A stretch of DNA of 64,000 bases from a virus. The notes beneath the pieces were generated by a model. The model searched no databases, had not been told where the DNA came from, and saw only the letters and a program-made list of their open reading frames with translations. The stretch lies in the IMG/VR virus record IMGVR_UViG_3300044632_000794, positions 1 through 64,000 of that record; one strand, given 5' to 3'. A program made the translations under genes and the position numbers. This document shows positions 1 to 55,784 of the stretch, piece by piece. How positions within the stretch are numbered: position 1 is the stretch's first letter; every line of letters begins with the position of its first letter.

Positions 1-944
1 GAGGTTTGCTCAATCCTGAGCAATCCGCAAGATTCCTCGATTACATGTTCGATGCAACAGTAATCGGTAAAGTAGCACGTACAGTTCGAATGAGAGCTGA
101 CACTACAGAGATTGATCGTATTGGCGTTGGCACAAAGCTTATGAAGCTTGCAGCTGAAGCAGAGAACACTGGCGAAAATGCAGCCGTACAGTTCTCAAAG
201 ATTTCTCTCACAACAAAGAAGCTTCGCCTAGATTGGGAGCTTTCAACTGAGTCTCTAGAAGACAACATTGAAGGTGCAGATCTAGAAGATCACATTGCAA
301 GACTTATGGCAACACAGGCTGGTAACGACCTTGAGGACGTAGTCCTTAACGGTAACACAGCTCTAACATCAGATGCACTATACAAGTCATTTGACGGTGT
401 TGTTAAGATTGCAAAGGCAAACGGCCATGTAGTAGCTGGAGCAGGCGCAAACGTGTCTCGTGAAATCTTCAACAAGGCTCTTAAGGCTATGCCACGTAAG
501 TACAAGCAACGTCGTCCAGACCTACGCTTCCTTGCAGGCTCAAACCTAATTCAAGACTACTTGTACTCAACTTCACAGTTGGGTCAATACGGTTCTGCTA
601 ACCCACAAGATATTGCTTCAAGCATTATCCGTGGAAATGAAGGCGGACTTGGTGGACCTGCAGGATATGTGGCACCATTCGCATTCGGTATTCCGATTGT
701 TGAAGTTCCACTTCTTTCAGAGACACAAACTGGTACATATGCAACACCAACAGGCTCACATGGAGATGTCCACTTGACATTCCCAAATAACGTAGTTATT
801 GGTATCAAGCGTGATGTAACTGTTTACCGATTCTTCTGGCCAAAGAAGGACTCAATCGAATATACAATGTATACTCGCGTTGGTACCCAAATTGAGCAGG
901 CAGACGCATGGGTAGTCGTAAAAGACGTTAAGGTTGCTTCTTAA
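1..944 (+). CDS. Major capsid protein (HK97 fold), 5' truncated by window edge
   Basis: Forms the icosahedral head shell. The open frame runs off the left edge (codon frame begins at base 3, Gly before LLNPEQSARF), so the TTG at 6 is probably an internal Leu and the true N terminus lies outside. The visible 313 residues show actinophage major capsid features: LNPEQSARFLDYMFDAT near the start, KISLTTKKLRLDWELSTESL around residues 65-85, and a C-terminal RDVTVYRFFWPKKDSIEYT segment. Followed directly by an intrinsic terminator, as expected for a very highly expressed structural gene. Portal and protease genes, normally just upstream, must be outside the window. Confidence 0.93.
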   Translation, partial: GLLNPEQSARFLDYMFDATVIGKVARTVRMRADTTEIDRIGVGTKLMKLAAEAENTGENAAVQFSKISLTTKKLRLDWELSTESLEDNIEGADLEDHIARLMATQAGNDLEDVVLNGNTALTSDALYKSFDGVVKIAKANGHVVAGAGANVSREIFNKALKAMPRKYKQRRPDLRFLAGSNLIQDYLYSTSQLGQYGSANPQDIASSIIRGNEGGLGGPAGYVAPFAFGIPIVEVPLLSETQTGTYATPTGSHGDVHLTFPNNVVIGIKRDVTVYRFFWPKKDSIEYTMYTRVGTQIEQADAWVVVKDVKVAS

Positions 945-43461: not shown

Positions 43462-43596
43462 TTGTATAAAAATAAAGATTGGCTACATAGAAGATATGTT
43501 ATCCAAAGAAAAACAATGTCGGAGATTGCAGAAGAATGTGGCGTAAGCATTATGACCATACATAGAGCCCTAAAAGAAAAAGGTTTAATTAAATGA
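43462..43596 (+). CDS. 44-residue HTH protein
   Basis: TTG start preceded by AAAGAGGTG (43450-43458). The protein is one helix-turn-helix: KTMSEIAEECGVSIMTIHRA. Its stop overlaps the next ATG (AATGA), which supports a real gene. Likely a tiny DNA-binding regulator or a recombinase-type HTH remnant. Confidence 0.6.
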   Translation: MYKNKDWLHRRYVIQRKTMSEIAEECGVSIMTIHRALKEKGLIK

Positions 43597-43951: not shown

Positions 43952-44488
43952 ATGGAAATTGAATTATCTGATCATTTTGATCGCATGAACATGGTAGTTG
44001 AAGAACTTCTTAAGGGAAGCACTCCAACTCAAATTGCTACAATCACTGGACTCAAAAGGGCAGAGGTTTTAGAGCATATTGATGAATGGAAAGAAGTTGT
44101 AAGAAACGACTCTGGTGCTCGTGACAAAGCAAAAGAAGCTATATCTGCAGCTGACCAACACTATGCAATGCTTATAAGAGAAGCTCACGACCTGGCAAAA
44201 GAAGCCAAGATGCAGGGCCAGCTTAGTGTACAAGCAACAGCTATTAAATTAGCTTTGGACATTCAAGGCAAAAAGGTTACAATGCTTCAAGATGTGGGCT
44301 TGCTTGAAAATAATGAGTTAGCTTCACAGATATCAGATACAGAAAGAAAGCAGGAGATACTTGTAAAAATATTAAAAGAGGTTTCTGCGACATGTCCAAA
44401 ATGTAAACTTGAAGTATCAAAGAGACTATCACAAATAAATGGAATAGTAGAGCCGATAGAAATCATAGAGGCGGCATCAAATGAGTAA
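43952..44488 (+). CDS. Putative small terminase / HTH protein
   Basis: 178 residues. LLKGSTPTQIATITGLKRAEVLEHI is an HTH of the type found in small terminases, followed by helices (HYAMLIREAHDLAKEAKMQ, KLALDIQGKKVTMLQDVGLL) typical of the oligomerisation region, and a CPKCKLEV zinc pair near the end. It lies two genes upstream of the large terminase. Small terminase recognises the phage DNA for packaging. Assignment rests on HTH plus position. Confidence 0.65.
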   Translation: MEIELSDHFDRMNMVVEELLKGSTPTQIATITGLKRAEVLEHIDEWKEVVRNDSGARDKAKEAISAADQHYAMLIREAHDLAKEAKMQGQLSVQATAIKLALDIQGKKVTMLQDVGLLENNELASQISDTERKQEILVKILKEVSATCPKCKLEVSKRLSQINGIVEPIEIIEAASNE

Positions 44489-45068
44489 TAGCCCAATTGA
44501 TCTGACTAACCTAGAGATACTTGGTGAAAGAATCTATGTATATAAAAATTTTATATCACAGGATGAGATTGATAAGGTTCTTTTGGAAGTAAAAAATGTA
44601 GAAGATTGGCATGTTGGTGAATACTTTACAAATACAATGGGTACATACAACACAAGAACAGTTGATTACCTTAAGGAAAGAATTCAAAATTTATTAGACG
44701 ACAAACACTATGCTTCAGATTCATCACATGTTGTTAGAATGGTTAAAGGAAATATGTGGGGAGCCCACTCAGACGTACACGACTTTGAAGAAATTGAAAA
44801 GCTAGCTAAAGAGTATAAAGAAGGAGACGACTTTATTGACAAGCAGCTTTCAGTTTTTGGAACGATTGTATACTATCAATTGCCAATCAATGGCGGCGGG
44901 CTTTTTTATAGCAAACAAAACTTAAAATACAAGCCTTCCCCAGGAGACCTTGTTATTCATGGATCAGATGATTACTGTGAGCATGGCGTTGAAGAAGTTT
45001 TAGATGGAGAAAGATACGCTACTTCTGGCTATATATATAAGAATGTAAAGATTAAAAATGGACATTGA
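44481..45068 (+). CDS. 2OG/Fe(II) oxygenase between the terminase genes
   Basis: 195 residues, overlapping the small terminase by 8 bases and the large terminase by 11. Ligands H96-x-D98 (GAHSDVHD), H168 (CEHGVEEV), R178 (GERYATSG). SPGDLVIHGSDD is the strand before the second His. It is more divergent than the tandem trio and has no EGGE block (NGGGLFYSK instead). Co-translation with the packaging genes is unusual. Substrate unknown. Confidence 0.8.
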   Translation: MSNSPIDLTNLEILGERIYVYKNFISQDEIDKVLLEVKNVEDWHVGEYFTNTMGTYNTRTVDYLKERIQNLLDDKHYASDSSHVVRMVKGNMWGAHSDVHDFEEIEKLAKEYKEGDDFIDKQLSVFGTIVYYQLPINGGGLFYSKQNLKYKPSPGDLVIHGSDDYCEHGVEEVLDGERYATSGYIYKNVKIKNGH

Positions 45069-46848: not shown

Positions 46849-47093
46849 GTATATATCAAGAAAAAGCAAAAGCATGTGTCTGCTGCAGCAAGCATGTACC
46901 TTTGCCAACTAGATTAAAAGAATACAATGGAGTATTGCTTTGCCCAACAACTTTTGACAACATACATGAGTATAAAAGAGTTTGGACGGAAATGGGCAAA
47001 AGGCCTCCAGGAAGTATAAGAAAACATTTTTCTGAGTATGTTCAAAAGGTTGTAGAGCAATCCCTTGACAAAAATGATGATAAAATAATATAA
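46845..47093 (+). CDS. Small zinc-finger protein after terminase
   Basis: 82 residues, ATGA overlap with terminase. KACVCCSKHVPLPTRLKEYN then LLCPTTFDN: a C-x2-C ... C site. HNH or terminase-associated zinc proteins occur here in some phages, but no HNH residues are seen. A perfect consensus promoter for the following tRNA lies inside its 3' end and shares the stop codon. Confidence 0.6.
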   Translation: MSIYQEKAKACVCCSKHVPLPTRLKEYNGVLLCPTTFDNIHEYKRVWTEMGKRPPGSIRKHFSEYVQKVVEQSLDKNDDKII

Positions 47094-47094
47094 T
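47065..47094 (+). promoter_or_regulatory. Full-consensus promoter for tRNA-Met
   Basis: TTGACA (47065-47070), 18-base spacer, TATAAT (47089-47094). Both boxes are exact consensus. The TAA stop of the upstream gene (47091-47093) is part of the -10. The tRNA begins 9 bases after the -10. Confidence 0.85.
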
Positions 47095-47102
47095 TAGGCT
47101 AA

Positions 47103-47176
47103 GCAACAATAGCTTAGTCGGTTAAAGCCCCGAACTCATAATTCGGTAATCGTAGGTTCAAGTCCTACTTGTTGCA
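47103..47176 (+). tRNA. tRNA with CAT anticodon (Met, or Ile2)
   Basis: Cloverleaf by eye: acceptor GCAACAA (47103-47109) with TTGTTGC (47169-47175), discriminator A 47176; D stem GCTT/AAGC; anticodon stem CCGAA/TTCGG with loop CTCATAA, anticodon CAT at 47137-47139; T stem GTAGG/CCTAC. First pair G-C, so not an initiator of the C-A mismatch type. 3' CCA not encoded. Could be elongator Met or lysidine-modified Ile. Confidence 0.93.
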
Positions 47177-47187
47177 CAGGAGGCATA

Positions 47188-47529
47188 ATGTTTGATGAGC
47201 ATGATGACGAAGAGGAAATGATGTTGAAGATTCAACACTATTTAGATATTGGAGCAATAAAGATCGCTGGCTTTACTGATGACGGAGAAGCAATATTTGA
47301 ACTAAATGAAGAAACTACCTCACTTCTGGCACCAGACTTATGGAAAGCCCATGAAGAGTATGTTGACTCAGAGCTTATTGATCTTATGAATAATGGTCTT
47401 ATGGAGGTAGAATATGATGAAGAGCTTAATGCTACTTTTAATTTTACTAAAGAAGGATTTGAAATTGCAGAATCTAAAGGGATTATACCCATGCAAGACC
47501 TAGAAAGGTTTTATACAGATGAAGATTAA
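47188..47529 (+). CDS. Acidic protein, unknown (conserved phage type)
   Basis: 113 residues with CAGGAGG (47177-47183) 4 bases before ATG. Acidic; KIQHYLDIGAIKIAGFTDDG, AIFELNEETTSLLAPDLWKA, FNFTKEGFEIAESKGIIP suggest a winged-helix-like alpha/beta fold. Probably co-transcribed with the tRNA. Function unknown. Confidence 0.6.
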   Translation: MFDEHDDEEEMMLKIQHYLDIGAIKIAGFTDDGEAIFELNEETTSLLAPDLWKAHEEYVDSELIDLMNNGLMEVEYDEELNATFNFTKEGFEIAESKGIIPMQDLERFYTDED

Positions 47530-47617
47530 GATACAATATTATGTATATAAAATTTATTTAAAGTTAAAGAAAAAAATATTAAAGCCTAAAACAGACAGAG
47601 AAAAGTTTATCTACTAA
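47519..47617 (+). CDS. Possible 32-residue basic peptide
   Basis: ATG overlaps the previous gene; the stop TAATG is shared with the carbamoyltransferase ATG. Very basic: KIYLKLKKKILKPKTDREK. No ribosome site of its own, but the stop-start coupling and the otherwise empty 88-base gap favour translation. It may serve mainly to couple translation into the next gene. Confidence 0.4.
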   Translation: MKIKIQYYVYKIYLKLKKKILKPKTDREKFIY

Positions 47618-49053
47618 TGATTATACTTGGAATAAATGAAACATCTCACGATGCATCAGTATCTTTAATTAAAGACGGAGAGATATTGTTTGCTGGCCAT
47701 TCAGAAAGATATAGTAAAAAGAAAAACGATTGGTATAACAACAAAGATATTATCCTGGATGCACTAAATTATGGTACGCCAAATGCAATTGCATACTACG
47801 AAAAGCCCCTGCTTAAAAAATCTAGAATGATTTTGCATGGTGGATCCAGCGACTGGAAGCCAAATTTTCCAATAGACGTTCCAGTGCATTACTTTAAACA
47901 CCACTACTCACATGCATCTGCTGGATATTACACAAGCCTATTTAATGATGCCGCAATTGTTGTTTTAGATGCAATTGGAGAGTATAACACTTCAACAATA
48001 TGGGTTGGAGAAGGAAATAAAATTAAATTGAAATATAAGCAAAACTACCCAGTTAGCTTTGGATTATTTTATTCCGCATTTACAAAACTAATTGGCCTTA
48101 TGCCAAATCAAGAAGAATACATAATGATGGGAATGGCTGCCTATGGCGATTGGAAAAGATATTACAAAGAGGTAGATGAGTATTTTCCTTCATACGATAA
48201 ACAAAAGTATAACTTTCATAAAGGAATTAATGACTGGGGAATTATAATTACAGAGCAAGATAGATTTGATATTGCAGCAGCAGTTCAAATGGTATACGAG
48301 CAAAGACTAAATCAGTTTATGCGTATGGCAAAGTCTATAACTGGTAAAAACAATCTAGTTTTTATGGGTGGTTGCGCTCTCAACTCTTCTGCAAATACGA
48401 TTCTGTGGAAGATATTTGACATGATTTGGATTATGCCAAACCCAGGAGATGCTGGCAGCTCTTTGGGTGCTGCGGCAGCTTTATATGGAAAGCATATTGA
48501 TTGGAAGACTCCCTACCTTGGCTACGATCTTGGGGGAGAGTATCCTGTTCAGCAAATTCTGGACGGTATATTAAAAGATGGCATAGTAGCAGTAGCAGCA
48601 GGCAGAGCAGAATACGGACCAAGAGCCCTAGGGAATAGAAGTATTCTTGCAGATCCAAGAGATCCAAACATTAAAGACAAGGTAAATATAATTAAACAGA
48701 GAGAGATGTTCAGGCCCTTTGCACCTGTGGTAATGTCAGAGCATGCATCTAAATGGTTTGATATGGACTTTGAAAGCCCTTATATGCAATACACAGTTAA
48801 ATGTTTACAGCCAGAAAAAATACCGTCCGTTGTTCATGCTGATGGAACATCTAGAGTTCAAACTGTTACAAAAGAACAGAATCCTGGACTGTATAGAGCT
48901 TTAAATAAATTTTATTTACAAACTGGAGTTCCAATACTTTTAAACACAAGTTTAAATATAAAGGGTCAGCCTTTATTAAATGACGAAAATGACATAGTTA
49001 ATTGGGAAAATGAATATAATTTTAAAATTCTTAGGGGAGTAACTGGTGAATAA
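47617..49053 (+). CDS. O-carbamoyltransferase (NodU/TobZ/CmcH family)
   Basis: 478 residues. YrdC-unrelated two-part family architecture: N-terminal Kae1-like part with NETSHDASVSLIKDG (H11-D12), HHYSHASAGYY (H95, H96, H99), VVLDAIGEYNTSTIW; MGGCALNSSAN and NPGDAGSSLGAA; C-terminal part GRAEYGPRALGNRSILADPR and FRPFAPVVMSE. The family transfers carbamoyl from carbamoyl phosphate via a carbamoyl-AMP to hydroxyl groups. Known relatives act on sugars or antibiotics, and phage-type members have been shown to carbamoylate 5-hydroxymethylcytosine in DNA. Slightly shorter than bacterial forms (~550-600). Acceptor unknown here. Confidence 0.9.
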   Translation: MIILGINETSHDASVSLIKDGEILFAGHSERYSKKKNDWYNNKDIILDALNYGTPNAIAYYEKPLLKKSRMILHGGSSDWKPNFPIDVPVHYFKHHYSHASAGYYTSLFNDAAIVVLDAIGEYNTSTIWVGEGNKIKLKYKQNYPVSFGLFYSAFTKLIGLMPNQEEYIMMGMAAYGDWKRYYKEVDEYFPSYDKQKYNFHKGINDWGIIITEQDRFDIAAAVQMVYEQRLNQFMRMAKSITGKNNLVFMGGCALNSSANTILWKIFDMIWIMPNPGDAGSSLGAAAALYGKHIDWKTPYLGYDLGGEYPVQQILDGILKDGIVAVAAGRAEYGPRALGNRSILADPRDPNIKDKVNIIKQREMFRPFAPVVMSEHASKWFDMDFESPYMQYTVKCLQPEKIPSVVHADGTSRVQTVTKEQNPGLYRALNKFYLQTGVPILLNTSLNIKGQPLLNDENDIVNWENEYNFKILRGVTGE

Positions 49054-50098
49054 AAATGTTATCCAAGTTAGTTATGATTCAGATCCTATAATTTTTACAA
49101 TAATATCAGCTTTTAGAAGTTTGTTGCGTAGAAGCGTACTCTTTGATATAAATGCAAAAGAGAATCAGCGGTATATGTACTGTCCAGATTACAATTTATC
49201 TATCGATGATGATAATGAAATGATCAACCAGATGAATCTAGTTAAAAAAAATTTTGATGTACACAAAGATTATAGAAAAAGGCATAAGTATATTCTTGAA
49301 GGAAAAGAAAAAGAAATAGAATACAGATACAATCAAATTGGTTATCGAGGAAAAAAAGTTTTGGGGACAGAAAAATTTATAGCAATTGGATGCTCTCAAA
49401 CATTTGGAAGTTCCTTAGAAGAAGAGTTTACTTGGCCTACTCAACTCGAAAAACTCTTAGGATCAAGTGTTGTAAATTTAGGAACTCCTGGCGACAGCGC
49501 AAGAGGATCAATATTAAAAGCAATGGCTTATATAAAGCAATTTGGAAAACCAGATGCCATATTTGCTTGTTTTCCAATATCTAGATCTGAAAAATTTTCA
49601 GTCCCAGGGAAAACAGTAAATAAAAGAAGCAACCTGTCAGGTCCATTCAATTCCATGCATTTAAAAGATAGCTTTAAGTTAATTGCTAAAGCTCCATATG
49701 ATTACGAAGACGTAACTCCATTAGAGGATTATATCCTAGATACATTTTCTTTTATTAATATTTTTGATGCATACTGCAAAGAGGCTGGAATTAAATTAAT
49801 ATGGACTGGTTGGGAGGCACAGTTTGCATCAAATAGAGTAGAGGATGTGCTAAATGAACACACATCTGGATTCTTTTTTGATACCAGCATGAATGATTTT
49901 AATTTTGTTAAAGAGAACCCCGAATGCCATACAGAGTATTTAGAACACCCACTCTTCGATTATGCGGCAGATGTGGTTGTTAATCCTGATGGTCGTAAAA
50001 GTGGGCATAAGGGAATACACTGGAATATTCATATGGCTGAAAGATGCTATCTAGAGTATTTAAAATATAAACCTATTGATTATTCCGCAGATAAATAG
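49046..50098 (+). CDS. SGNH/GDSL-type hydrolase
   Basis: 350 residues, overlapping the carbamoyltransferase by 8 bases. Ser block IAIGCSQTFGSSL (S117), block VVNLGTPGDSARG (G and N/D oxyanion residues), and a late HWNIHMAERCY with the catalytic His candidate. An N-terminal ~90-residue extension precedes it. SGNH enzymes hydrolyse or transfer acyl groups on sugars and lipids. Coupled to carbamoyltransferase, so both may act on one hydroxylated substrate (inference). A distant paralog lies at 54042-54944. Confidence 0.75.
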   Translation: MNKNVIQVSYDSDPIIFTIISAFRSLLRRSVLFDINAKENQRYMYCPDYNLSIDDDNEMINQMNLVKKNFDVHKDYRKRHKYILEGKEKEIEYRYNQIGYRGKKVLGTEKFIAIGCSQTFGSSLEEEFTWPTQLEKLLGSSVVNLGTPGDSARGSILKAMAYIKQFGKPDAIFACFPISRSEKFSVPGKTVNKRSNLSGPFNSMHLKDSFKLIAKAPYDYEDVTPLEDYILDTFSFINIFDAYCKEAGIKLIWTGWEAQFASNRVEDVLNEHTSGFFFDTSMNDFNFVKENPECHTEYLEHPLFDYAADVVVNPDGRKSGHKGIHWNIHMAERCYLEYLKYKPIDYSADK

Positions 50099-50104
50099 TA
50101 TACT
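50076..50104 (+). promoter_or_regulatory. Promoter for tRNA-Arg
   Basis: TTGATT (50076-50081), 17-base spacer, TATACT (50099-50104). The tRNA starts 9 bases downstream. As with the Met tRNA, the promoter lies in the 3' end of the upstream gene and overlaps its stop codon. Confidence 0.65.
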
Positions 50105-50112
50105 GATGTTAT

Positions 50113-50184
50113 ACCTCTGTAGCTCAGAGGAAGAGCAACAGACTTCTAATCTGTTGGCCGCTGGTTCGAATCCAGCCAGGGGTG
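50113..50184 (+). tRNA. tRNA-Arg (TCT)
   Basis: Acceptor ACCTCTG (50113-50119) with CAGGGGT (50177-50183), one T-G pair; D stem GCTC/GAGC; anticodon stem ACAGA/TCTGT, anticodon TCT at 50145-50147; T arm GCTGG-TTCGAAT-CCAGC. Discriminator G. No encoded CCA. Reads AGA, a frequent Arg codon in this AT-rich phage (Arg is mostly AGA in the genes here). Confidence 0.93.
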
Positions 50185-50221
50185 CGATACGTAGTATCAC
50201 CACTTATATATAAGGAGAAAA

Positions 50222-50758
50222 ATGAAAACCGTAGGAGATAAGCTTGGTAACTTTGCTGTTACTGGAGTTAAGCCAGGGGCTTTGTCGTATGATGAATCCT
50301 CTTTCGAAATAATTACGCAGGAATCTTTTCCAGGAAAATGGAAAGTTATTGCTTTCTATCCCAAGGACTTTACGTTTGTATGCCCAACCGAAATTGTTGC
50401 ATACGATGCTTTAGTAAATGATTTTAATGATAGAGATACAGTTCTAATGACTGGTTCTGTTGATAATGAATTTTGCAAAATTGCATGGAGAAATGCACAT
50501 GATGATCTCAAGAAGACAAACTCATGGTCATTTGCAGATACAGCGCACCAACTAGCTAGCGACCTTGGAGTACATCACTCTTCTGGAGTTACATACCGTG
50601 CTACATTTATTGTTGACCCAGAAAATATTATTCAGCATGTAACTGTAAACAATCTAGATGTAGGAAGAAACCCAGACGAAACACTTCGCATACTAGATGC
50701 ACTGCAAACAGGAGAGCTTTGTGCATGCAATAGGTCATTAGGCGGAGAAACTCTTTAA
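50222..50758 (+). CDS. ahpC: AhpC-type peroxiredoxin (alkyl hydroperoxide reductase)
   Basis: 178 residues. Peroxidatic C54 in FTFVCPTEI; C167 and C169 in GELCACNRSLGG. This three-Cys C-terminal pattern is that of mycobacterial AhpC (two resolving Cys near the end), which is reduced by AhpD rather than AhpF; ahpD follows directly (TAATG). Reduces peroxides and peroxynitrite. AAGGAG (50213-50218) site before ATG. A host-derived stress gene carried by the phage. Confidence 0.93.
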   Translation: MKTVGDKLGNFAVTGVKPGALSYDESSFEIITQESFPGKWKVIAFYPKDFTFVCPTEIVAYDALVNDFNDRDTVLMTGSVDNEFCKIAWRNAHDDLKKTNSWSFADTAHQLASDLGVHHSSGVTYRATFIVDPENIIQHVTVNNLDVGRNPDETLRILDALQTGELCACNRSLGGETL

Positions 50759-51270
50759 TGACATGGGTAGACCAACTTAAAGAATCTCTTCCAGAGTATG
50801 CTAAAGATATAAAATTAAACCTGGATGCTGTTATTAATAGGTCTACTATTGATCCAGAGCATGCTACATACCTTTCAATTTCAGCAGCATTTGCAACTGG
50901 AAACGCCAAGCTGCTTGCATTTATAGTTGCAAGCGCAACGGATGAAGTCGAAAAGAATGCAGCCCTTACAGCAGGCGCTATAATGGCACAAAATAATACC
51001 TGGTATCCTTTTATTGAAATGGCTGACGATGCTAATCTTAAAGGATTACCAGCACAACTTAGAATGAATGCTATATCATCTCACGGCGGTACAACAAAGG
51101 GCAAGTTTGAAGCATACTCATTAGCATCATCAATAGTTGGCAAGTGTCATTTTTGTGTTAAAGCACACTATGATACATTGAAAGAAGAAGGATATAGTGT
51201 TGAGCAATTACGTGATATCGGAAGAATTGCAGCAACAATTAATGCGCTGTCTAAGATCTTGTCAGCTTAA
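50758..51270 (+). CDS. ahpD: AhpD alkylhydroperoxidase
   Basis: 170 residues, all-alpha AhpD fold. Catalytic residues line up with M. tuberculosis AhpD numbering: E118, C130, C133 and H137 (motif GKCHFCVKAHYDTL). The M. tuberculosis enzyme also uses His132; here residue 132 is Phe and a His is at 131, a possible change in proton relay. It passes electrons from lipoamide to AhpC. Coupled to ahpC by TAATG. Confidence 0.92.
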   Translation: MTWVDQLKESLPEYAKDIKLNLDAVINRSTIDPEHATYLSISAAFATGNAKLLAFIVASATDEVEKNAALTAGAIMAQNNTWYPFIEMADDANLKGLPAQLRMNAISSHGGTTKGKFEAYSLASSIVGKCHFCVKAHYDTLKEEGYSVEQLRDIGRIAATINALSKILSA

Positions 51271-51307
51271 ATTGATTTCCTTGGTATGAATTAAAACTGC
51301 CAGCATT

Positions 51308-51380
51308 GTTCCTATAGCTCAGCTGGTAGAGCAGCAGACTTTTAATCTGCGGGTCGATGGTTCGATACCATCTGGGGACA
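51308..51380 (+). tRNA. tRNA-Lys (TTT)
   Basis: Acceptor GTTCCTA (51308-51314) with TGGGGAC (51373-51379); D stem GCTC/GAGC; anticodon stem GCAGA/TCTGC, loop CTTTTAA, anticodon TTT at 51341-51343; T arm GATGG-TTCGATA-CCATC. Discriminator A. CCA not encoded. Reads AAA, a preferred Lys codon here. Confidence 0.94.
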
Positions 51381-51384
51381 CGCT

Positions 51385-51457
51385 TGGGGATTAGCTCAGC
51401 TGGCAGAGCGGGAAACTGTTAATTTCTAGGTCATAGGTTCGATCCCTATATCCCCAG
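51385..51457 (+). tRNA. tRNA-Asn (GTT)
   Basis: Acceptor TGGGGAT (51385-51391) with ATCCCCA (51450-51456); D stem GCTC/GAGC; anticodon stem GGAAA/TTTCT (one G-T), anticodon GTT at 51418-51420; T arm ATAGG-TTCGATC-CCTAT. Discriminator G 51457, as usual for Asn. Lies 4 bases after tRNA-Lys, so both are processed from one transcript. Confidence 0.94.
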
Positions 51458-51462
51458 CAATA

Positions 51463-51471
51463 TGATATAAT
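51463..51471 (+). promoter_or_regulatory. Extended -10 promoter TGATATAAT before hsp20
   Basis: TGATATAAT directly after tRNA-Asn. Expected start ~51478 gives a ~50-base leader holding GAAAGGGG (51516-51523) before the ATG at 51529. The leader also contains CGCCAAACGGGGCC, which might fold weakly. Confidence 0.6.
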
Positions 51472-51528
51472 TAAAACAGGTCGCCAAACGGGGCCTAAAT
51501 TAAACTATTCGCTTGAAAGGGGAATAAA

Positions 51529-51945
51529 ATGGTAACACAATTTGCTATGGATCTATTTAAGGATCCATTTTTTATTGGCTTCAACAGAGAGTTGGAGCGT
51601 TTCAATAGTCTTAGTAAGGTAAACAATACGGCATTCCCGCCATATGATTTGCTAAAGCTAGACGAAGATAACTATCAGTTAACTCTGGCAGTTGCTGGAT
51701 TCACAAGAGAAGATCTGACTGTGTCAATTGAAGACGGAAGTCTTTGGATCACAGGTGAAATTACAGAGGTAACAGATGCAGAAATTGTCCACAAGGGAAT
51801 CGCTGCACGTAAGTTCACAAGAATCTTTGAACTAAGTGAATACATGGAAGTTTCTAGTGTAGAGCTAAAGGATGGCATGTTGCATATCCGTGTAGTTAGA
51901 AATCTACCAAAAGAAAAACAACCAAAAATTCTAAAAATTAAATAA
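51529..51945 (+). CDS. Small heat-shock protein Hsp20 (IbpA-like)
   Basis: 138 residues. Alpha-crystallin domain from ~38: PPYDLLKLDEDNYQLTLAVA, GFTREDLTVSIEDGSLWITG, then RKFTRIFELSEYMEVSSVEL and DGMLHIRVVRNLPK; C-terminal basic tail KQPKILKIK with the IxI-like motif. The N-terminal FFIGFNRELERFNSL matches the IbpA start. ATP-independent chaperone, known from cyanophages where it is thought to assist virion assembly. Starts after a GAAAGGGG site. Confidence 0.9.
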   Translation: MVTQFAMDLFKDPFFIGFNRELERFNSLSKVNNTAFPPYDLLKLDEDNYQLTLAVAGFTREDLTVSIEDGSLWITGEITEVTDAEIVHKGIAARKFTRIFELSEYMEVSSVELKDGMLHIRVVRNLPKEKQPKILKIK

Positions 51946-51996
51946 CCGTGAGACCTGGGTATGTCCAAAAACTGCCCTTCTAACAGAAAGATTAAA

Positions 51997-52758
51997 ATGA
52001 TTATACAAATTATTGGATTACCAGGCTCTGGGAAAACAGAACTTGCAAAAGCCTTGAAAGAGCGCATTAATGCTATTCACCTTAATGCTGACGAAGTTCG
52101 TGCAACAGTAAATTCTGATTTAGGGTTTAGTCTAGACGACAGGCTTGAGCAGGCTCGACGCATGGGAGAGATGGCAAGGTTAATATCTAAACAAGGTGTT
52201 GCTCCAGTAGTTGTTGACTTCGTATGCCCAACGGAACTAACACGATCAGCTTTTGGTAAGCCAGACGTACTTGTATTTATGGATACTCTTGCAGAAGGCC
52301 GTTTTGAAGACACCAATAAAATGTTTGAACGACCAACAGAGTTTGATGTATCATTTATTAGCCATAACCTAGATGCAGAAGCAAAGGCGTCTCACATAAT
52401 TAATAAGTTTAATCTACATGATTGGTCTGCACCTACAACACTTATGCTGGGTAGGTACCAGCCTTGGCACGAAGGCCACCACGCCCTTTACAAGGAGGCG
52501 GGTAAGAGAACAGATCAAGTACTACTTGGAGTACGTAATACATATAATACAAGTGAAAAAGATCCACTTAAGTTTGATCAGGTAAAGGAATATATTGCCA
52601 AAGATGAATTTATGGATGGGGCATTAGTATTAAGACTACCTAACATTACCAATATTGTATATGGTCGTGATGTAGGATATAAAATTGAGCAAGTAGATTT
52701 GGGGGCAACTATACATGCTATTTCAGCTACTGAAAAACGTCGTGAATTGGGCATCTAG
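51997..52758 (+). CDS. Kinase-nucleotidyltransferase fusion (APS-kinase-like P-loop + HxGH)
   Basis: 253 residues from ATG 51997; an in-frame ATG at 51961 would add 12 residues. N-terminal half: P-loop GLPGSGKT (residues 7-14), LNADEVRATVN, APVVVDFVCPTELTRSAFG resembling CysC-type adenylylsulfate kinase. C-terminal half: GRYQPWHEGHHALYKEAGKR with the HxGH motif H158/H161 and ISATEKRRELG near the end, the nucleotidyltransferase signature. NadR carries the reverse order. Possible roles: NAD salvage-like step or making a nucleotide-activated group. DUF2061, often next to APS kinases, follows. Confidence 0.8.
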   Translation: MIIQIIGLPGSGKTELAKALKERINAIHLNADEVRATVNSDLGFSLDDRLEQARRMGEMARLISKQGVAPVVVDFVCPTELTRSAFGKPDVLVFMDTLAEGRFEDTNKMFERPTEFDVSFISHNLDAEAKASHIINKFNLHDWSAPTTLMLGRYQPWHEGHHALYKEAGKRTDQVLLGVRNTYNTSEKDPLKFDQVKEYIAKDEFMDGALVLRLPNITNIVYGRDVGYKIEQVDLGATIHAISATEKRRELGI

Positions 52759-52837
52759 TATCGGTAAAGGTATTGCAGATGCAGAAGAAAGAATGATAGA
52801 AGAGATGTATAGGAAAAAAGAAGATGAAAGTAACTAA
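52742..52837 (+). CDS. Possible 31-residue acidic peptide
   Basis: GTG start inside the end of the fusion gene, stop inside the DUF2061 start. Reads NWASSIGKGIADAEERMIEE then MYRKKEDESN, an amphipathic helix; it fills the 65-base gap between the flanking genes. No good ribosome site. Confidence 0.4.
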   Translation: MNWASSIGKGIADAEERMIEEMYRKKEDESN

Positions 52838-53027
52838 AGCCAGATCATTTGTTAAAGCATTAAGCTATCGCATATGGGGAACACTTTCTTCTGTAGCAGT
52901 TGCTTATGCTATTACAAAAAATGCTTCTCTATCTGTTACAATTGCATTTTGGGAAACGGTAGTTAAGGTATTTATTTACTACGCACATGAGCGTGGATGG
53001 AACTATATACAATGGGGGAGAAAATAA
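52824..53027 (+). CDS. DUF2061 membrane protein
   Basis: 67 residues. SFVKALSYRIWGTLSSVAVA, YAITKNASLSVTIAFWETVV and KVFIYYAHERGWNYI match DUF2061, a small two-helix membrane family commonly found beside sulfate-assimilation kinases. Here it follows a P-loop kinase fusion. AAAGAAG (52815-52821) site. Function unknown. Confidence 0.8.
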   Translation: MKVTKARSFVKALSYRIWGTLSSVAVAYAITKNASLSVTIAFWETVVKVFIYYAHERGWNYIQWGRK

Positions 53028-53434
53028 TGTTTGAATATTATGTAAAGAAAGTAAGCAAGGTTGTAGACGGAGATACTATTGATGTAGATATTGATCTTGG
53101 GTTTGATATATCATTTACTTCAAGAGTCAGGTTAGCTGGGATAGATACTCCAGAAAGTCGTACAACAGATAAAATGGAAAAAGCATTAGGTCTTGAAGCC
53201 AAAGCTTACCTTAAGAGTGCAATTGACTCAGCTAAATCTGTTGTTATCAAAACAGAAAAGATGGACTCATCTGAAAAGTATGGTCGCATTTTAGGATGGG
53301 TTTTCTTGGACGGATCAGATAAATCTATTAATCAAAAGATGATTGAGGACGGACATGCTTGGGGCTATATGGGAGAAACAAAGATTAAAGACTTTGACGC
53401 ATTAGCAAAAGCTAGGAAGAAAAGCGGTAAGTAA
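53027..53434 (+). CDS. Thermonuclease-like (SNase) nuclease
   Basis: 135 residues from ATG 53027, chosen over an upstream in-frame start at 52997 because GGGGGAG (53014-53020) lies 6 bases before it. KVVDGDTIDVDIDLGF, RVRLAGIDTPESR, GLEAKAYLKSAI and KYGRILGWVFLDG are SNase family motifs (catalytic Arg/Glu/Arg positions present). No signal peptide, so it acts inside the cell, perhaps on host DNA. Confidence 0.85.
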   Translation: MFEYYVKKVSKVVDGDTIDVDIDLGFDISFTSRVRLAGIDTPESRTTDKMEKALGLEAKAYLKSAIDSAKSVVIKTEKMDSSEKYGRILGWVFLDGSDKSINQKMIEDGHAWGYMGETKIKDFDALAKARKKSGK

Positions 53435-54036
53435 TGACTTCTGTATTAGATCAAATTAAGTCTGCTAAAAAAAATAATACATTTCTGCATATAAAAAATT
53501 TTAATAGCGATGTGCCGTCATGGGATAATTTTATTAATAACCTAAACTATAAGTATAATAACAACTACGAAAATAAAAAAAATGAGGATAGAAGATTTTT
53601 TACAAATAATGATGTCAAGACTGAAATTTTTTCTCAGTATGACAAACTAGATGCATTTGCACACTACTCTTATGTATTTAAAAACAATGAGAGTTTTTTT
53701 AAAGAAAACTACCTACCTGGCTGTGAAGACATAGCAAAAATGCTATATGAATCATTAGAAGAAGATAAGCAATTTATACATGCAACTGCAATAACAAATT
53801 TTATTAAGCATGATAAGGAGTATGAAATTCATTTTGATGGAACTGAGGTAATTAATTGGCATTGTATTGGGAAAATAGAATGGAAAGTCTATGACGAAAA
53901 TGATAATTGTTCTGTTTTGCAAATAGATCCAGGCGATTTAGTTTTTATTCCTGCTAAAATGAAGCATCAGGTTATAATATATGAGCCTAGAGCTTCAATA
54001 ATATTTGATTTCTTTTTAAAAGAAGATGCAGCATAA
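53434..54036 (+). CDS. Cupin/JmjC-like Fe(II)/2OG oxygenase candidate
   Basis: 200 residues, TAATG overlap with the nuclease gene. FIKHDKEYEIHFDGTEV supplies H133-x-D135, and DPGDLVFIPAKMKHQVIIYE supplies H178; this H-x-D...H layout in a cupin barrel is that of JmjC-type 2OG hydroxylases. N-terminal SAKKNNTFLHIKNFNSDVPS and DKLDAFAHYSYVF are typical of the flanking helices. It forms a pair with 55134-55784. Substrate unknown. Confidence 0.75.
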   Translation: MTSVLDQIKSAKKNNTFLHIKNFNSDVPSWDNFINNLNYKYNNNYENKKNEDRRFFTNNDVKTEIFSQYDKLDAFAHYSYVFKNNESFFKENYLPGCEDIAKMLYESLEEDKQFIHATAITNFIKHDKEYEIHFDGTEVINWHCIGKIEWKVYDENDNCSVLQIDPGDLVFIPAKMKHQVIIYEPRASIIFDFFLKEDAA

Positions 54037-54041
54037 TCTTT

Positions 54042-54944
54042 ATGAAAAATAAATACAGTCATATAGAAAAAGATTTGTCTCCTGATAATTTTATTTCAAA
54101 AAATGTTAGAAAAGGAATTAAATTTTATAAAAAAGATGGATATTTTTACAGCGATATTTTATTTTTTTATGAAACTTCATTAACCAGCGGTGAGGCATTT
54201 GAATATCAAATAAACTCTCAGGGGTTTAGGGGAAAAGACTTTAGCGAATTTAATGACAATAACATCAATATATTATTTGGTGGATGCTCACAAACACTTG
54301 GAGTTGGACTGCCAGAAAAAAATACATGGTATTCAAAGCTATCTAATAAAATAAAATTATTGCATGAAGGCAGAGACGTTGATTTTTATAATGTTGGTGT
54401 AAATGGAGGAGGCATTGATCTTACTATAAAAAATGTTATTGCTTTTATAAGAAGTGGCAAAATCCCAGATTATTTATTTTTATTCCTACCAGAATCTTCT
54501 AGAACTATTTGTTTTGAAGAAAAAACAAAAAAATTTCAACCCTACTTGTTAACTAATCCTCGTGATGAAGATAAAGATTACTATTCTAATAAATATATAC
54601 ACGAGAATAAACTACTTACAAATTTTATGTTATTGTCAATGCTAGAAGAAATATGTAAATTCTCAGGTATAAAGTTATTGTGGACAACATGGTGGCTTGA
54701 TGACAATAGCCTATATTCTAACTCATCATTTAATAATTTCTTTGCTATGAGCAAAGAATTGCCTTATCATGTTGTTCTTGAAAAAGAAGGTAATGAGTTT
54801 AATGTTGCATACTTTAATGAAGAGTTTGAAAATAATGACAATGAATCATATTGGCATGTTGCAAGGGATGGAAGTCACTATGGTTCGGCTGCAAGCAACT
54901 TTATTGCTGAAAGTTTTATGAAAGAATTAAATAGGGTTAAGTAA
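54042..54944 (+). CDS. SGNH/GDSL-type hydrolase, second copy
   Basis: 300 residues. Block I ILFGGCSQTLGVGL with S83, block NVGVNGGGIDLT, and a C-terminal RDGSHYGSAA giving the D276-x-x-H279 pair. Shares the GCSQT-G start block and the W-x-TWW/WTGWE strand (KLLWTTWW versus KLIWTGWE) with the protein at 49046, so the two are paralogs. Likely sugar O-acyl esterase/transferase. Located between two JmjC-like genes. Confidence 0.75.
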   Translation: MKNKYSHIEKDLSPDNFISKNVRKGIKFYKKDGYFYSDILFFYETSLTSGEAFEYQINSQGFRGKDFSEFNDNNINILFGGCSQTLGVGLPEKNTWYSKLSNKIKLLHEGRDVDFYNVGVNGGGIDLTIKNVIAFIRSGKIPDYLFLFLPESSRTICFEEKTKKFQPYLLTNPRDEDKDYYSNKYIHENKLLTNFMLLSMLEEICKFSGIKLLWTTWWLDDNSLYSNSSFNNFFAMSKELPYHVVLEKEGNEFNVAYFNEEFENNDNESYWHVARDGSHYGSAASNFIAESFMKELNRVK

Positions 54945-55132
54945 TGCCAGTATACGAATATAAATGCTCATACGACGAAGCCCATCCATTAATGTCAGTA
55001 CATAGATCAATTGTAGATAGTGATCCTGGATACACCTGTGTTGAATGCGAATCTAATATGATTAGACATTTTACACCATTTGGAATACAATTTAAGGGTA
55101 GTGGATTTTACAAGACAGATAACGGGGGATAG
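54944..55132 (+). CDS. FmdB-type zinc ribbon protein
   Basis: 62 residues, TAATG overlap. Starts MPVYEYKCSYDEAHPL, second pair CVECESNMIRHFTP, and ends FKGSGFYKTDNGG, the characteristic FmdB/CxxC-zinc-ribbon layout. Putative regulator; function in phages unknown. Confidence 0.85.
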   Translation: MPVYEYKCSYDEAHPLMSVHRSIVDSDPGYTCVECESNMIRHFTPFGIQFKGSGFYKTDNGG

Positions 55133-55133
55133 A

Positions 55134-55784
55134 ATGCAAAGAGATACTATAGAAGAGTTTATGAAATTAATAAAAAAATCTATAGAGTTAAATAAACCAC
55201 TTTTTATAAAATCTTACATGGATTATAGTTTTACATGGGAACACATAATAGATGCAATTGATATTTCTTACAACACCAAGATCCCTTTGCCAAAAGACGT
55301 CGTAGTGGATGACCCAGATCATCTGATTGATCTTCAAATGGCACAGCCAAATAAACTTAAAACATCTTTTGATAAGCCTGTTACATTTCACGCTTTAGAC
55401 CTTTTGTCAGCAAACAATAAATTTGATTCAAAAGAGTATGATGAGGTTAAAGAAATGAAAGAAATTCTTCAAAAAACAGATATCGGGCGATACGTTTATG
55501 ACAAGTTTGCAATAAATATGGCAAAAAATGGATATTACGTGCTGCCACACAGAGACTCGCATCACGTTTTGTTGACTCAGGTAATTGGCAAATCAAAATA
55601 TGTAATACATGAATCATTAGAGTCTGATCCGTATAGCGAGCTTATTGATGTGTCTGAAAGAAAATTTACAGAGTATGATATGGAAAAAAATGATATTCTT
55701 TTTATGCCCAAAGGAACAATCCATTCAATAGAAAATTCAAGCCCACGTGTTAGCTGTATATTTGATATAAAAGATACTGTTTAA
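55134..55784 (+). CDS. Cupin/JmjC-like Fe(II)/2OG oxygenase candidate, second
   Basis: 216 residues from ATG 55134 (GGGGGAT, 55124-55130, just upstream; an in-frame ATG at 55080 lies within the previous gene). Metal ligands YVLPHRDSHH H139-x-D141 and MPKGTIHSIENS H197. The strand KNDILFMPKG is cupin-like. N-terminal NKPLFIKSYMDYSFTWEHII resembles the start of the gene at 53434. Pairing of two such enzymes with an SGNH hydrolase between is notable. Confidence 0.72.
   Translation: MQRDTIEEFMKLIKKSIELNKPLFIKSYMDYSFTWEHIIDAIDISYNTKIPLPKDVVVDDPDHLIDLQMAQPNKLKTSFDKPVTFHALDLLSANNKFDSKEYDEVKEMKEILQKTDIGRYVYDKFAINMAKNGYYVLPHRDSHHVLLTQVIGKSKYVIHESLESDPYSELIDVSERKFTEYDMEKNDILFMPKGTIHSIENSSPRVSCIFDIKDTV

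What the first reader, a model, noticed from the sequence alone, without database searches (positions are those of the whole stretch)
47617..55784. Candidate undescribed modification system: carbamoyltransferase, SGNH, JmjC-like and kinase-nucleotidyltransferase genes
One 8-kb segment encodes an O-carbamoyltransferase, two paralogous SGNH hydrolase/transferases, two cupin oxygenases and a P-loop kinase fused to a nucleotidyltransferase; a DUF1599 protein lies at 43593. Carbamoyltransferases have been shown to modify 5-hydroxymethylcytosine in phage DNA; others decorate sugars. Oxygenases could make the hydroxyl, carbamoyl and acyl groups could cap it. The window shows no cytosine hydroxymethylase or DNA methylase, so a DNA target is not proven; a fiber or wall glycan is equally possible.
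Basis: partly seen in the sequence, partly recalled or inferred. Interest (0 to 1): 0.85.

Follow-up and report, generated by a model that had tools for sequence, protein, structure and literature searches.

The report
Mobile carbamoyltransferase–SGNH gene pair in actinophages
A large phage, probably of actinobacteria, carries a two-gene cassette (a carbamoyl-adding enzyme plus a partner hydrolase-like enzyme) that most likely decorates a sugar or protein rather than DNA, in a genome unusually rich in other decorating enzymes.

Summary
The genes are real, but they are not one system. The core is a pair with overlapping ends, an O-carbamoyltransferase (CARB, 47617-49053) and an SGNH protein (SGNH1, 49046-50098), lying between tRNA-Met and tRNA-Arg. 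In IMG/VR an SGNH of this family is next to CARB in 63 of 80 contigs (11.3 expected), or 33 of 43 after collapsing near-identical CARBs (4.7 expected). In one close relative the pair looks swapped as a unit between much more similar flanks. Bacterial relatives also sit beside SGNH/GDSL and SxtJ genes. The kinase-nucleotidyltransferase and the oxygenases are not enriched beside CARB; JmjC1-SGNH2-JmjC2 is a variable island.

A DNA target is not supported. The practically complete ~117-kb genome has no thymidylate-synthase/hydroxymethylase or C5-methylase match. CARB keeps an Arg (TobZ R423) that is Thr in all four hydroxymethylase-linked phage enzymes examined, and lies outside their clade.

Best reading: carbamoylation, plus acyl transfer or hydrolysis, of a surface glycan, or second of a hydroxylated protein; the acceptor is unproven. 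The genome also encodes about 14 2OG-Fe(II) oxygenase domains; five lie within seven genes downstream of a Pro-repeat putative tail protein, a layout seen in four of six genomes examined.

The parts
47103..47177 (+). tRNA-Met (CAT), left border of the cassette
   Evidence: in relatives L022, L036, L038 the Met, Arg and Lys tRNAs are contiguous
47188..47529 (+). 113-aa protein of unknown family, next to CARB in 17 of the 20 contigs that have it
47617..49053 (+). CARB: NodU/TobZ-type O-carbamoyltransferase, 478 aa
   Evidence: dN/dS about 0.03-0.08 in the seven pairs computed
49046..50098 (+). SGNH1: SGNH-fold protein, GTG start overlapping the CARB end by 8 bases
50113..50185 (+). tRNA-Arg (TCT), right border of the cassette
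50222..50758 (+). AhpC-type peroxiredoxin; separate conserved block, not part of the cassette
50758..51270 (+). AhpD-like (CMD) protein; separate block
51308..51458 (+). tRNA-Lys and tRNA-Asn
51529..51945 (+). Hsp20; separate block
51961..52758 (+). KinNT: APS-kinase-like P-loop kinase + NMNAT-like nucleotidyltransferase (second half weak)
   Evidence: not next to CARB in related contigs, but relatives of its two halves lie directly upstream of a 45% identical CARB in L108
52997..53434 (+). SNase-type nuclease; not part of the cassette
53434..54036 (+). JmjC1: JmjC_2-like cupin (below Pfam cut-off), HxD...H kept; variable island
54042..54944 (+). SGNH2: paralogue of SGNH1; variable island
55080..55784 (+). 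JmjC2: JmjC_2 cupin; nearest solved sequences are ribosomal protein L16 arginine hydroxylases (weak, E 0.015); variable island
44481..45068 (+). one of about 14 2OG-Fe(II) oxygenase domains of the genome (below Pfam cut-off; others in the window at 25593, 37847, 38860, 39920 are above it)

Best explanation
CARB-SGNH1 is a mobile two-gene decoration cassette. CARB activates carbamoyl phosphate with ATP to carbamoyl-AMP and transfers the carbamoyl group to a hydroxyl of a non-DNA acceptor, most likely a surface glycan of the virion or of the infected, probably actinobacterial, cell. SGNH1 removes or transfers an acyl group on the same acceptor. CARB varies little and SGNH1 much, so I infer that CARB makes a common decoration and that the SGNH partner tracks a varying acceptor. 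Shown: gene content, adjacency, one case of exchange as a unit, purifying selection on CARB, non-DNA residue class. Follows from family knowledge: the reaction chemistry. Inferred: a glycan acceptor, a surface role, and the benefit (receptor or adhesin change, shielding, superinfection exclusion).
For: Adjacent in 63 of 80 contigs versus 11.3 expected; 33 of 43 versus 4.7, and 30 of 38 versus 4.2, after collapsing CARBs at 98% and 95%. CARB sits in different genome contexts. Exchange as a unit in L047: identity 0.73-0.85 at 47.4-50.1 kb between 0.87-1.00 (42.6-47.4 kb) and 0.95-0.97 (50.1-51.6 kb); dS 0.99 and 1.40 against 0.32 (TerL) and 0.19 (AhpC). Bacterial relatives: of 121 immediate neighbours scanned, 24 are SxtJ, 17 Lipase_GDSL_2, 4 ALGX; of 110 second-ring neighbours, 4 match Glycos_transf_1 and 4 Glycos_transf_2. 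Other phages: CARB beside heptose-pathway genes in S-CAM1 and S-SSM7, beside a sugar-nucleotide dehydrogenase in HTVC008M, after a glycosyltransferase in XacN1. Representatives of neighbour clusters in related contigs match three glycosyltransferase, two sulfotransferase and an FkbM methyltransferase Pfams. The named solved relatives of CARB are antibiotic carbamoyltransferases. The SGNH1 fold list includes carbohydrate esterases and peptidoglycan O-acetyltransferases.
Against: No acceptor is identified. Only one glycosyltransferase over cut-off (L091:13001) was seen among the 40 proteins of this genome that I scanned against Pfam, of 165 ORFs called in G001. The second-ring glycosyltransferase signal in bacteria is modest. 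P-SSM2's CARB lies among replication and purine genes. SGNH1's top fold match, tied with others, is a peptide-releasing enzyme. Exchange of the pair shows clearly in one of the two contigs profiled; in L055 CARB is no more diverged than its left flank. 17 of 80 contigs have no adjacent SGNH, 13 of them none on the stretch held, some because the contig ends. SGNH1 and SGNH2 have no tblastn match in 50,697 phage records.
Confidence: 0.5

Rival explanations
1. Peptide or protein target: the oxygenases hydroxylate residues of a phage protein or peptide, CARB carbamoylates the new hydroxyl, and the SGNH protein acts as a hydrolase on the product, as in crocagin biosynthesis (2OG dioxygenase CgnC, leader-removing hydrolase CgnD, carbamoyltransferase CgnI).
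For: SGNH1's top-ranked and longest fold match is CgnD (Z 14.1, 219 residues aligned, model 21..339). Crocagin uses this enzyme trio (PMC10070186, passages read). A NodU-like carbamoyltransferase acts on a peptide lysine in the std cluster (PMC13174530, preprint, passages read). The genome has about 14 2OG-Fe(II) domains and a Pro-repeat protein beside five of them.
Against: The CgnD match is tied by Z with an ordinary GDSL fold (13.2), and a profile of the family does not find CgnD by sequence up to E 1. Oxygenases are not enriched next to CARB (4 seen, 8.6 expected). No obvious precursor gene adjoins the cassette: three small ORFs outside the genes at 47093-50222, two of them over the tRNA; the rest of the genome was not searched for one.
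Confidence: 0.22
2. Small-molecule or secondary-metabolite tailoring (an auxiliary metabolic gene): the cassette modifies a diffusible host or phage metabolite.
For: The named solved members act in antibiotic pathways (PDB titles; pathways recalled); related contigs carry a tryptophan halogenase, a peroxidase and SDRs near CARB; cyanophages carry carbamoyltransferase with prnA (PMC3037559, passages).
Against: No scaffold-making enzyme (PKS, NRPS, terpene) was seen among the annotated genes; phage cargo is sparse for a pathway. No dedicated search was made.
Confidence: 0.13
3. DNA hypermodification: CARB carbamoylates 5-hydroxymethylcytosine or another hydroxylated base in phage DNA.
For: A metagenomic phage carbamoyltransferase does this (PMC8670742, abstract and passages); many oxygenases are present.
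Against: No PF00303 in 9 of 9 records, no PF00145 in 9 of 9, no PF12851 over cut-off in 9 of 9 (sub-threshold in 2, none in G000/G001; no control genome rang). TobZ-R423-equivalent is Thr in 4 of 4 hydroxymethylase-linked enzymes and Arg in 23 of 23 others including CARB. Separate clade, 100/100, on a long branch.
Confidence: 0.06
4. tRNA or translation role: the YrdC-like/Kae1-like two-domain enzyme modifies the phage's own ANN-decoding tRNAs that border it, in the manner of t6A synthesis.
For: All four tRNAs at the locus read ANN codons (Met, Arg-TCT, Lys, Asn); so do 32 of 33 found in 15 related loci (one Leu). CARB has a weak Sua5_yciO_yrdC match (E 0.034, below cut-off). The relation of TobZ-type domains to YrdC and Kae1 is recalled.
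Against: These tRNAs are common phage cargo expected from AT-rich codons (G+C 0.37; the expectation is recalled); CARB is far closer to O-carbamoyltransferases; L025, L084 and L085 have CARB but no tRNA on the stretch held.
Confidence: 0.03

Closest known systems
NodU/TobZ-type O-carbamoyltransferases (TobZ, GdmN, novobiocin carbamoyltransferase)
   Same: both Pfam domains, GPRALGNRS and RPFAP signatures, best PDB relatives
   Different: phage-borne, 478 aa, paired with an SGNH gene, acceptor unknown
5-hydroxymethylcytosine carbamoyltransferase of phages (PMC8670742)
   Same: same superfamily and chemistry
   Different: no thymidylate-synthase homologue in the genome; R423-type residue not changed to Thr; separate clade
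Bacterial carbamoyltransferase neighbourhoods with SxtJ and SGNH/GDSL genes
   Same: carbamoyltransferase next to an SGNH protein
   Different: no SxtJ match in the phage records (no control rang); phage SGNH1/2 match no Pfam family over cut-off, while the bacterial neighbours match Lipase_GDSL families
Cyanophage 'Nol' carbamoyltransferases with 2OG oxygenases and prnA (PMC3037559; S-SZBM1 with nine oxygenases, PMC9146016)
   Same: similar cargo repertoire
   Different: 26-34% identical in the cyanophage rows; neighbours are heptose-pathway genes in S-CAM1 and S-SSM7; here a terminase of actinophage type and an SGNH partner
Crocagin biosynthesis (CgnC/CgnD/CgnI, PMC10070186)
   Same: 2OG oxygenase + SGNH-like hydrolase + carbamoyltransferase; CgnD tops the fold list
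   Different: no precursor peptide found beside the pair; no sequence match to CgnD; oxygenases dispersed

Membership tests
O-carbamoyltransferase (NodU/TobZ) | Carbam_trans_N and Carbam_trans_C domains over cut-off | tested here: met
   117.5 and 186.6 bits against 24 and 27
O-carbamoyltransferase (NodU/TobZ) | conserved motifs (GPRALGNRS, RPFAP, HHxxH) | tested here: met
   invariant H95 H96 H99 D118 R336 R341 R366 in the 11 rows of A2
O-carbamoyltransferase (NodU/TobZ) | transfer of carbamoyl from carbamoyl phosphate | not testable with these tools
   needs an enzyme assay
5hmC-DNA carbamoyltransferase | thymidylate-synthase/dCMP-hydroxymethylase homologue in the genome | tested here: not met
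   0 of 9 records incl. G000 and G001; control rings in 9 of 14
5hmC-DNA carbamoyltransferase | changed residue at TobZ R423 (Thr in hydroxymethylase-linked enzymes) | tested here: not met
   CARB has Arg; Thr in 4 of 4 linked enzymes, Arg in 23 of 23 others
5hmC-DNA carbamoyltransferase | membership of the hydroxymethylase-linked clade | tested here: not met
   clade of 4 separated at 100/100, on a branch of 3.09 changes per column; the tool warns of long branches
SGNH hydrolase superfamily (SGNH1, SGNH2) | block I Ser, block II Gly, block V Asp/His | tested here: met
   Ser 61/61, Gly 60/61, Asp 57/61, His 59/61; block names recalled
SGNH hydrolase superfamily (SGNH1, SGNH2) | block III Asn (GxND) | tested here: inconclusive
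   no Asn stands out after block II; a P...R motif is conserved there
SGNH hydrolase superfamily (SGNH1) | SGNH fold | tested here: met
   model pLDDT 78.5; Z 10.4-14.1 in the 50 rows shown, nearly all SGNH/GDSL enzymes
Crocagin-type peptide pathway | CgnD-family SGNH-like protein | tested here: inconclusive
   top fold match but tied by Z; no sequence match
Crocagin-type peptide pathway | precursor peptide gene beside the enzymes | tested here: inconclusive
   only three small ORFs outside genes at 47093-50222; rest of genome not searched for one
Bacterial carbamoyltransferase-SxtJ-SGNH neighbourhood | SxtJ present | tested here: inconclusive
   0 of 9 records, but no control genome rang
DUF1599 / nucleotide-modification associated (gene at 43593) | match to the Pfam family | tested here: not met
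   no Pfam family at E<=0.01
JmjC_2 (PF08007) cupins | score over cut-off and HxD...H | tested here: met
   JmjC2 27.1 vs 22 bits, HRD...H; JmjC1 keeps HFD...H but scores 18.9, below cut-off

The most novel reading that the evidence does not exclude
The phage runs a modular hydroxylate-then-decorate programme on its own tail proteins. Prolyl-hydroxylase-like 2OG oxygenases hydroxylate the (FFSPPFFPPG)n putative tail protein encoded beside them, and exchangeable cassettes (carbamoyltransferase-SGNH, sulfotransferase, glycosyltransferase, halogenase) then cap those residues, producing a swappable virion surface that is not written in the protein sequence.
Probability: 0.1. Interest if true: 0.88.

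Novelty: new variant of a known kind. Interest (0 to 1): 0.5.

Why it matters
At least 574 IMG/VR stretches encode a relative of CARB, and carbamoyltransferases of cyanophages have been listed as auxiliary genes without a shown target; one paper explains one as pyrimidine synthesis (PMC9146016, passages read). Defining the unit as a CARB-SGNH pair that sits at a tRNA row and differs from the DNA-modifying branch turns a vague annotation into a testable two-enzyme reaction. The residue and clade test may also help annotators separate DNA-type from other phage carbamoyltransferases; it rests on four DNA-linked enzymes.

Tried and rejected
Rejected: the 8-kb segment as one operon or system; DNA as the target; DUF1599 at 43593; KinNT as an obligate CARB partner in this phage group (0 seen, 2.6 expected). 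The L108 contig, labelled a gammaproteobacterial MAG, keeps the last idea alive outside the group.

Led nowhere: structure of KinNT (mean pLDDT 53.4; not searched); SGNH2 against PDB sequences (no match to E 10); first genome-contig scan with the single protein (no relative; the second scan that the tool then allows was used with an alignment); a viral-contig scan with the SGNH alignment; papers on Nanopelagicales phages with carbamoyltransferase. VIA-align reports 944 chains with Z>=2 for SGNH1, so no fold is excluded.

Rows dropped or chosen: 5 duplicate loci of contigs already counted. Bacterial loci: 74 of 80 gave an ORF for CARB; 121 of 129 neighbours scanned (two from L108, presumed viral, and six long or contig-edge ones left out). 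Second ring: 110 of 255 eligible neighbours, random sample. Family tallies show the first 25 families only: of 69, 185, 42. Relative contigs: best 80 of 574 kept by the tool. dN/dS: 7 contigs chosen by me. Identity profile: 2 contigs. Tree: 45 rows chosen by me. Pfam scan of this phage's own genes: 40 proteins.


Full report
WHAT THE WINDOW IS. The window is bases 1-64000 of an 84,475-base virus record, G000. A second record, G001 (117,027 bases), matches it at 99.97% and more; G000 bridges the two ends of G001 at a repeat-rich gene, so the whole genome is about 117.2 kb (inferred from the overlap). The terminase is 63.5% identical to that of Streptomyces phages of about 128 kb, so the host is probably an actinobacterium (inference). 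Habitat is not told by any search.

CHECK OF THE OBSERVATION. The listed genes are there, with two corrections. The protein at 43593 has no DUF1599 match, and the first cupin scores below the Pfam cut-off. Inside the same segment lie AhpC, AhpD, Hsp20 and SNase genes and three tRNAs, with a fourth tRNA just upstream; these do not fit a modification operon.

THE UNIT IS THE PAIR. I fetched the best 80 CARB loci of 574 candidate stretches in IMG/VR and SGNH1 loci, and compared gene order. After removing duplicate contigs, a member of one SGNH family is next to CARB in 63 of 80 contigs, where random gene order gives 11.3. The contigs are related; keeping one contig for each group of CARBs at 98% or 95% identity gives 33 of 43 (4.7 expected) and 30 of 38 (4.2 expected). 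Other genes: 2OG oxygenases 4 against 8.6, kinase-NT 0 against 2.6, Hsp20 3 against 2.8. Smaller excesses exist: gene 47188 17 against 3.0, a family of unknown function 6 against 1.4, another 5 against 0.8, a second GDS-motif family (L036:10659) 4 against 0.8, and a sulfotransferase-like family (by eye; L037:3849) 3 against 0.5. AhpC is in excess within two genes (13 against 4.1). CARB identity does not follow the terminase: contigs with terminase at 51-57% identity have CARB at 85-89%, while those with terminase at 98% have CARB at 87%.

EXCHANGE AS A CASSETTE. Between the window and L047 the terminase has dS 0.32 and AhpC 0.19, but CARB 0.99 and SGNH1 1.40. Base identity is 0.73-0.85 at 47.4-50.1 kb, against 0.87-1.00 at 42.6-47.4 kb and 0.95-0.97 at 50.1-51.6 kb; the SNase gene also dips (dS 0.90). 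In the second contig profiled, L055, all is more diverged: SGNH1 dips (0.69-0.72) but CARB (0.74-0.86) does not stand out from its left flank. So exchange of the whole pair is shown in one of two. In the window the pair lies between tRNA-Met and tRNA-Arg, and AhpC-AhpD between tRNA-Arg and tRNA-Lys. In L022, L036 and L038 these three tRNAs are contiguous and CARB lies just before the row; in L025, L084 and L085 no tRNA was found on the stretch. The tRNA row looks like a landing site for modules. A tRNA hot spot is also described in cyanophages (PMC3037559, passage). JmjC1-SGNH2-JmjC2 is absent from L055; L047 keeps only JmjC1, at 68%.

SELECTION. CARB is under strong purifying selection (dN/dS 0.03-0.08 in the seven pairs computed), while the best SGNH1 match in the same contigs is 28-72% identical. 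dS is saturated in most pairs, and the SGNH matches need not be orthologous.

WHAT CARB IS. Its nearest solved relatives are the novobiocin carbamoyltransferase, GdmN and TobZ. The study that discovered 5-hydroxymethylcytosine carbamoyltransferase found its co-occurrence with thymidylate synthase only on modified contigs, and ranked TobZ residues W408, G421 and R423 highest for differential conservation (PMC8670742, passages read). Through the alignment these fall on V326, G339 and R341 of CARB; the numbering rests on a six-residue offset between the PDB chain and TobZ, whose length I recall. I took four phage enzymes with a thymidylate synthase or dCMP hydroxymethylase nearby: Xp15, MD-2021a, BF503P2, and Effie, the last only by gene order shared with MD-2021a. 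All four have Thr at R341; all 23 other rows have Arg. The RPFA/RPYA motif of the others is MPMA or MPCA in the four. V326 does not discriminate, and G339 is changed in two of the four. The four form a separate clade at 100/100, on a long branch that the tool warns about. No thymidylate synthase or C5-methylase occurs in 9 of 9 related records; TET/JBP gives only sub-threshold hits, in 2 of 9, which the shared oxygenase fold may explain.

WHERE RELATIVES SIT. In bacteria the immediate neighbours are SxtJ (24 of 121), Lipase_GDSL_2 (17) and ALGX (4); in the second ring two glycosyltransferase families appear in 4 of 110 each. In phages, CARB relatives lie with heptose-pathway genes (S-CAM1, S-SSM7), a sugar-nucleotide dehydrogenase (HTVC008M) or a glycosyltransferase (XacN1), but among DNA-replication and purine genes in P-SSM2. 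The 51 cluster representatives near CARB in related contigs match, among others, a tryptophan halogenase, three glycosyltransferase Pfams, two sulfotransferase Pfams, an FkbM methyltransferase, several oxygenases and a pyrimidine-dimer glycosylase; which proteins carry which is not told. A 108-kb contig (L108) has separate kinase and nucleotidyltransferase genes, 49% and 38% identical to the halves of KinNT, directly before a 45% identical CARB, with two SGNH-like genes (by motif) upstream. A kinase-nucleotidyltransferase-CARB link therefore exists somewhere, though not in this phage group.

WHAT SGNH1 IS. The AlphaFold model (pLDDT 78.5) is an SGNH fold. The top VIA match is CgnD of crocagin biosynthesis (Z 14.1 over 219 residues), followed by a GDSL protein (13.2 over 162); the tool treats Z differences under 1 as ties. 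A family profile does not find CgnD by sequence. Crocagin combines a 2OG dioxygenase, the Ser-His-Asp hydrolase CgnD and a carbamoyltransferase (PMC10070186, passages); this is a lead for the peptide-target rival, not a membership.

THE OXYGENASE ARSENAL. An HMM seeded with six proteins of G001 finds 14 2OG-Fe(II) domains in G001, 14 in G004, 14 in G005, 10 in G003, 8 in G006 and 4 in G007. In G001, eleven pass the Pfam cut-off, one is just below (44481), and two rest on my HMM alone. Three JmjC_2-like cupins come on top, two of them over cut-off. S-SZBM1 was reported with nine copies (PMC9146016, passage), so the abundance is high rather than new in kind. Phage 2OG oxygenases are reported to resemble human prolyl hydroxylase EGLN3 in predicted structure (PMC12774648, passages). 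In four of six genomes a putative tail protein (weak phrog_1696 match) with an (FFSPPFFPPG)-like repeat is followed by 2OG genes: 5 of 14 within eight genes where 1.4 are expected (G001, G004, G005), 4 of 10 where 1.1 are expected (G003). The other two genomes lack the repeat protein. G001, G004 and G005 are close relatives.

VERDICT. A real carbamoyltransferase-SGNH cassette, mobile in at least one documented case; DNA as target unlikely; glycan most likely, hydroxylated protein second. Novel as a defined pair; the enzyme kinds are known. Papers were searched for carbamoyltransferase with SGNH and phage, with cyanophage, with 2OG-Fe and with Nanopelagicales; no title or abstract start listed describes the pair in phages. 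Most listed papers were seen only as listings, and the library holds open-licence papers only.

Noticed in passing
L092:8305-14117 (G001 48305-54117); G003 81864-90746; G004 107983-113821; G005 from 68878 (last oxygenase starts at 73997): A putative tail protein with a Phe/Pro repeat (FFSPPFFPPG or FFPPFFPFF) is followed by a near-continuous row of 2OG-Fe(II) oxygenases, in four of six genomes. A proline-hydroxylated tail protein is a testable idea.
   Followed up: partly
window 25593, 37847, 38860, 39920, 44481; L003:4413, L003:7481; L091:15436, L091:16221; L092:9650-14117: About 14 2OG-Fe(II) oxygenase domains in one 117-kb phage genome, including a fusion with an Asp/Asn beta-hydroxylase domain (L003:7481).
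   Followed up: yes
window 47103-51458: A row of tRNA genes (Met, Arg, Lys, Asn; all ANN-decoding) looks like a landing site: CARB-SGNH1 lies between Met and Arg, AhpC-AhpD between Arg and Lys, while in L022, L036 and L038 the first three are contiguous.
   Followed up: partly
L108:6940-9485: A 108-kb contig binned as a gammaproteobacterium, presumed viral, has relatives of the KinNT halves directly upstream of a CARB relative, and two SGNH-like genes.
   Followed up: partly
L072:14540-16057; L023:6083-7621; L044:6099-7619: Flavin-dependent tryptophan-halogenase-like genes in contigs with CARB; only the L044 copy was in the scanned set (PF04820 best E 2e-104, one member), the other two were seen by eye.
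   Followed up: no
L003:6685-7488 (record 70685-71488): Sulfotransferase-like protein (weak phrog_3347 match). With the APS-kinase-like half of KinNT, a sulfation route is conceivable.
   Followed up: no
L036:10659-11402: A second, separate protein family with a GDS motif lies directly next to CARB in 4 of the 7 contigs that have it: perhaps another kind of SGNH partner.
   Followed up: no
window 57616-57797: The record bridges a gap between the ends of the near-identical record G001 at a Pro/Glu-rich repeat gene, suggesting that assembly of G001 broke at the repeat.
   Followed up: yes
L003:1767-2927 (record 65767-66927): Ala-rich protein with an apparent signal peptide, resembling actinobacterial surface proteins (by eye only); possibly host-derived.
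   Followed up: no
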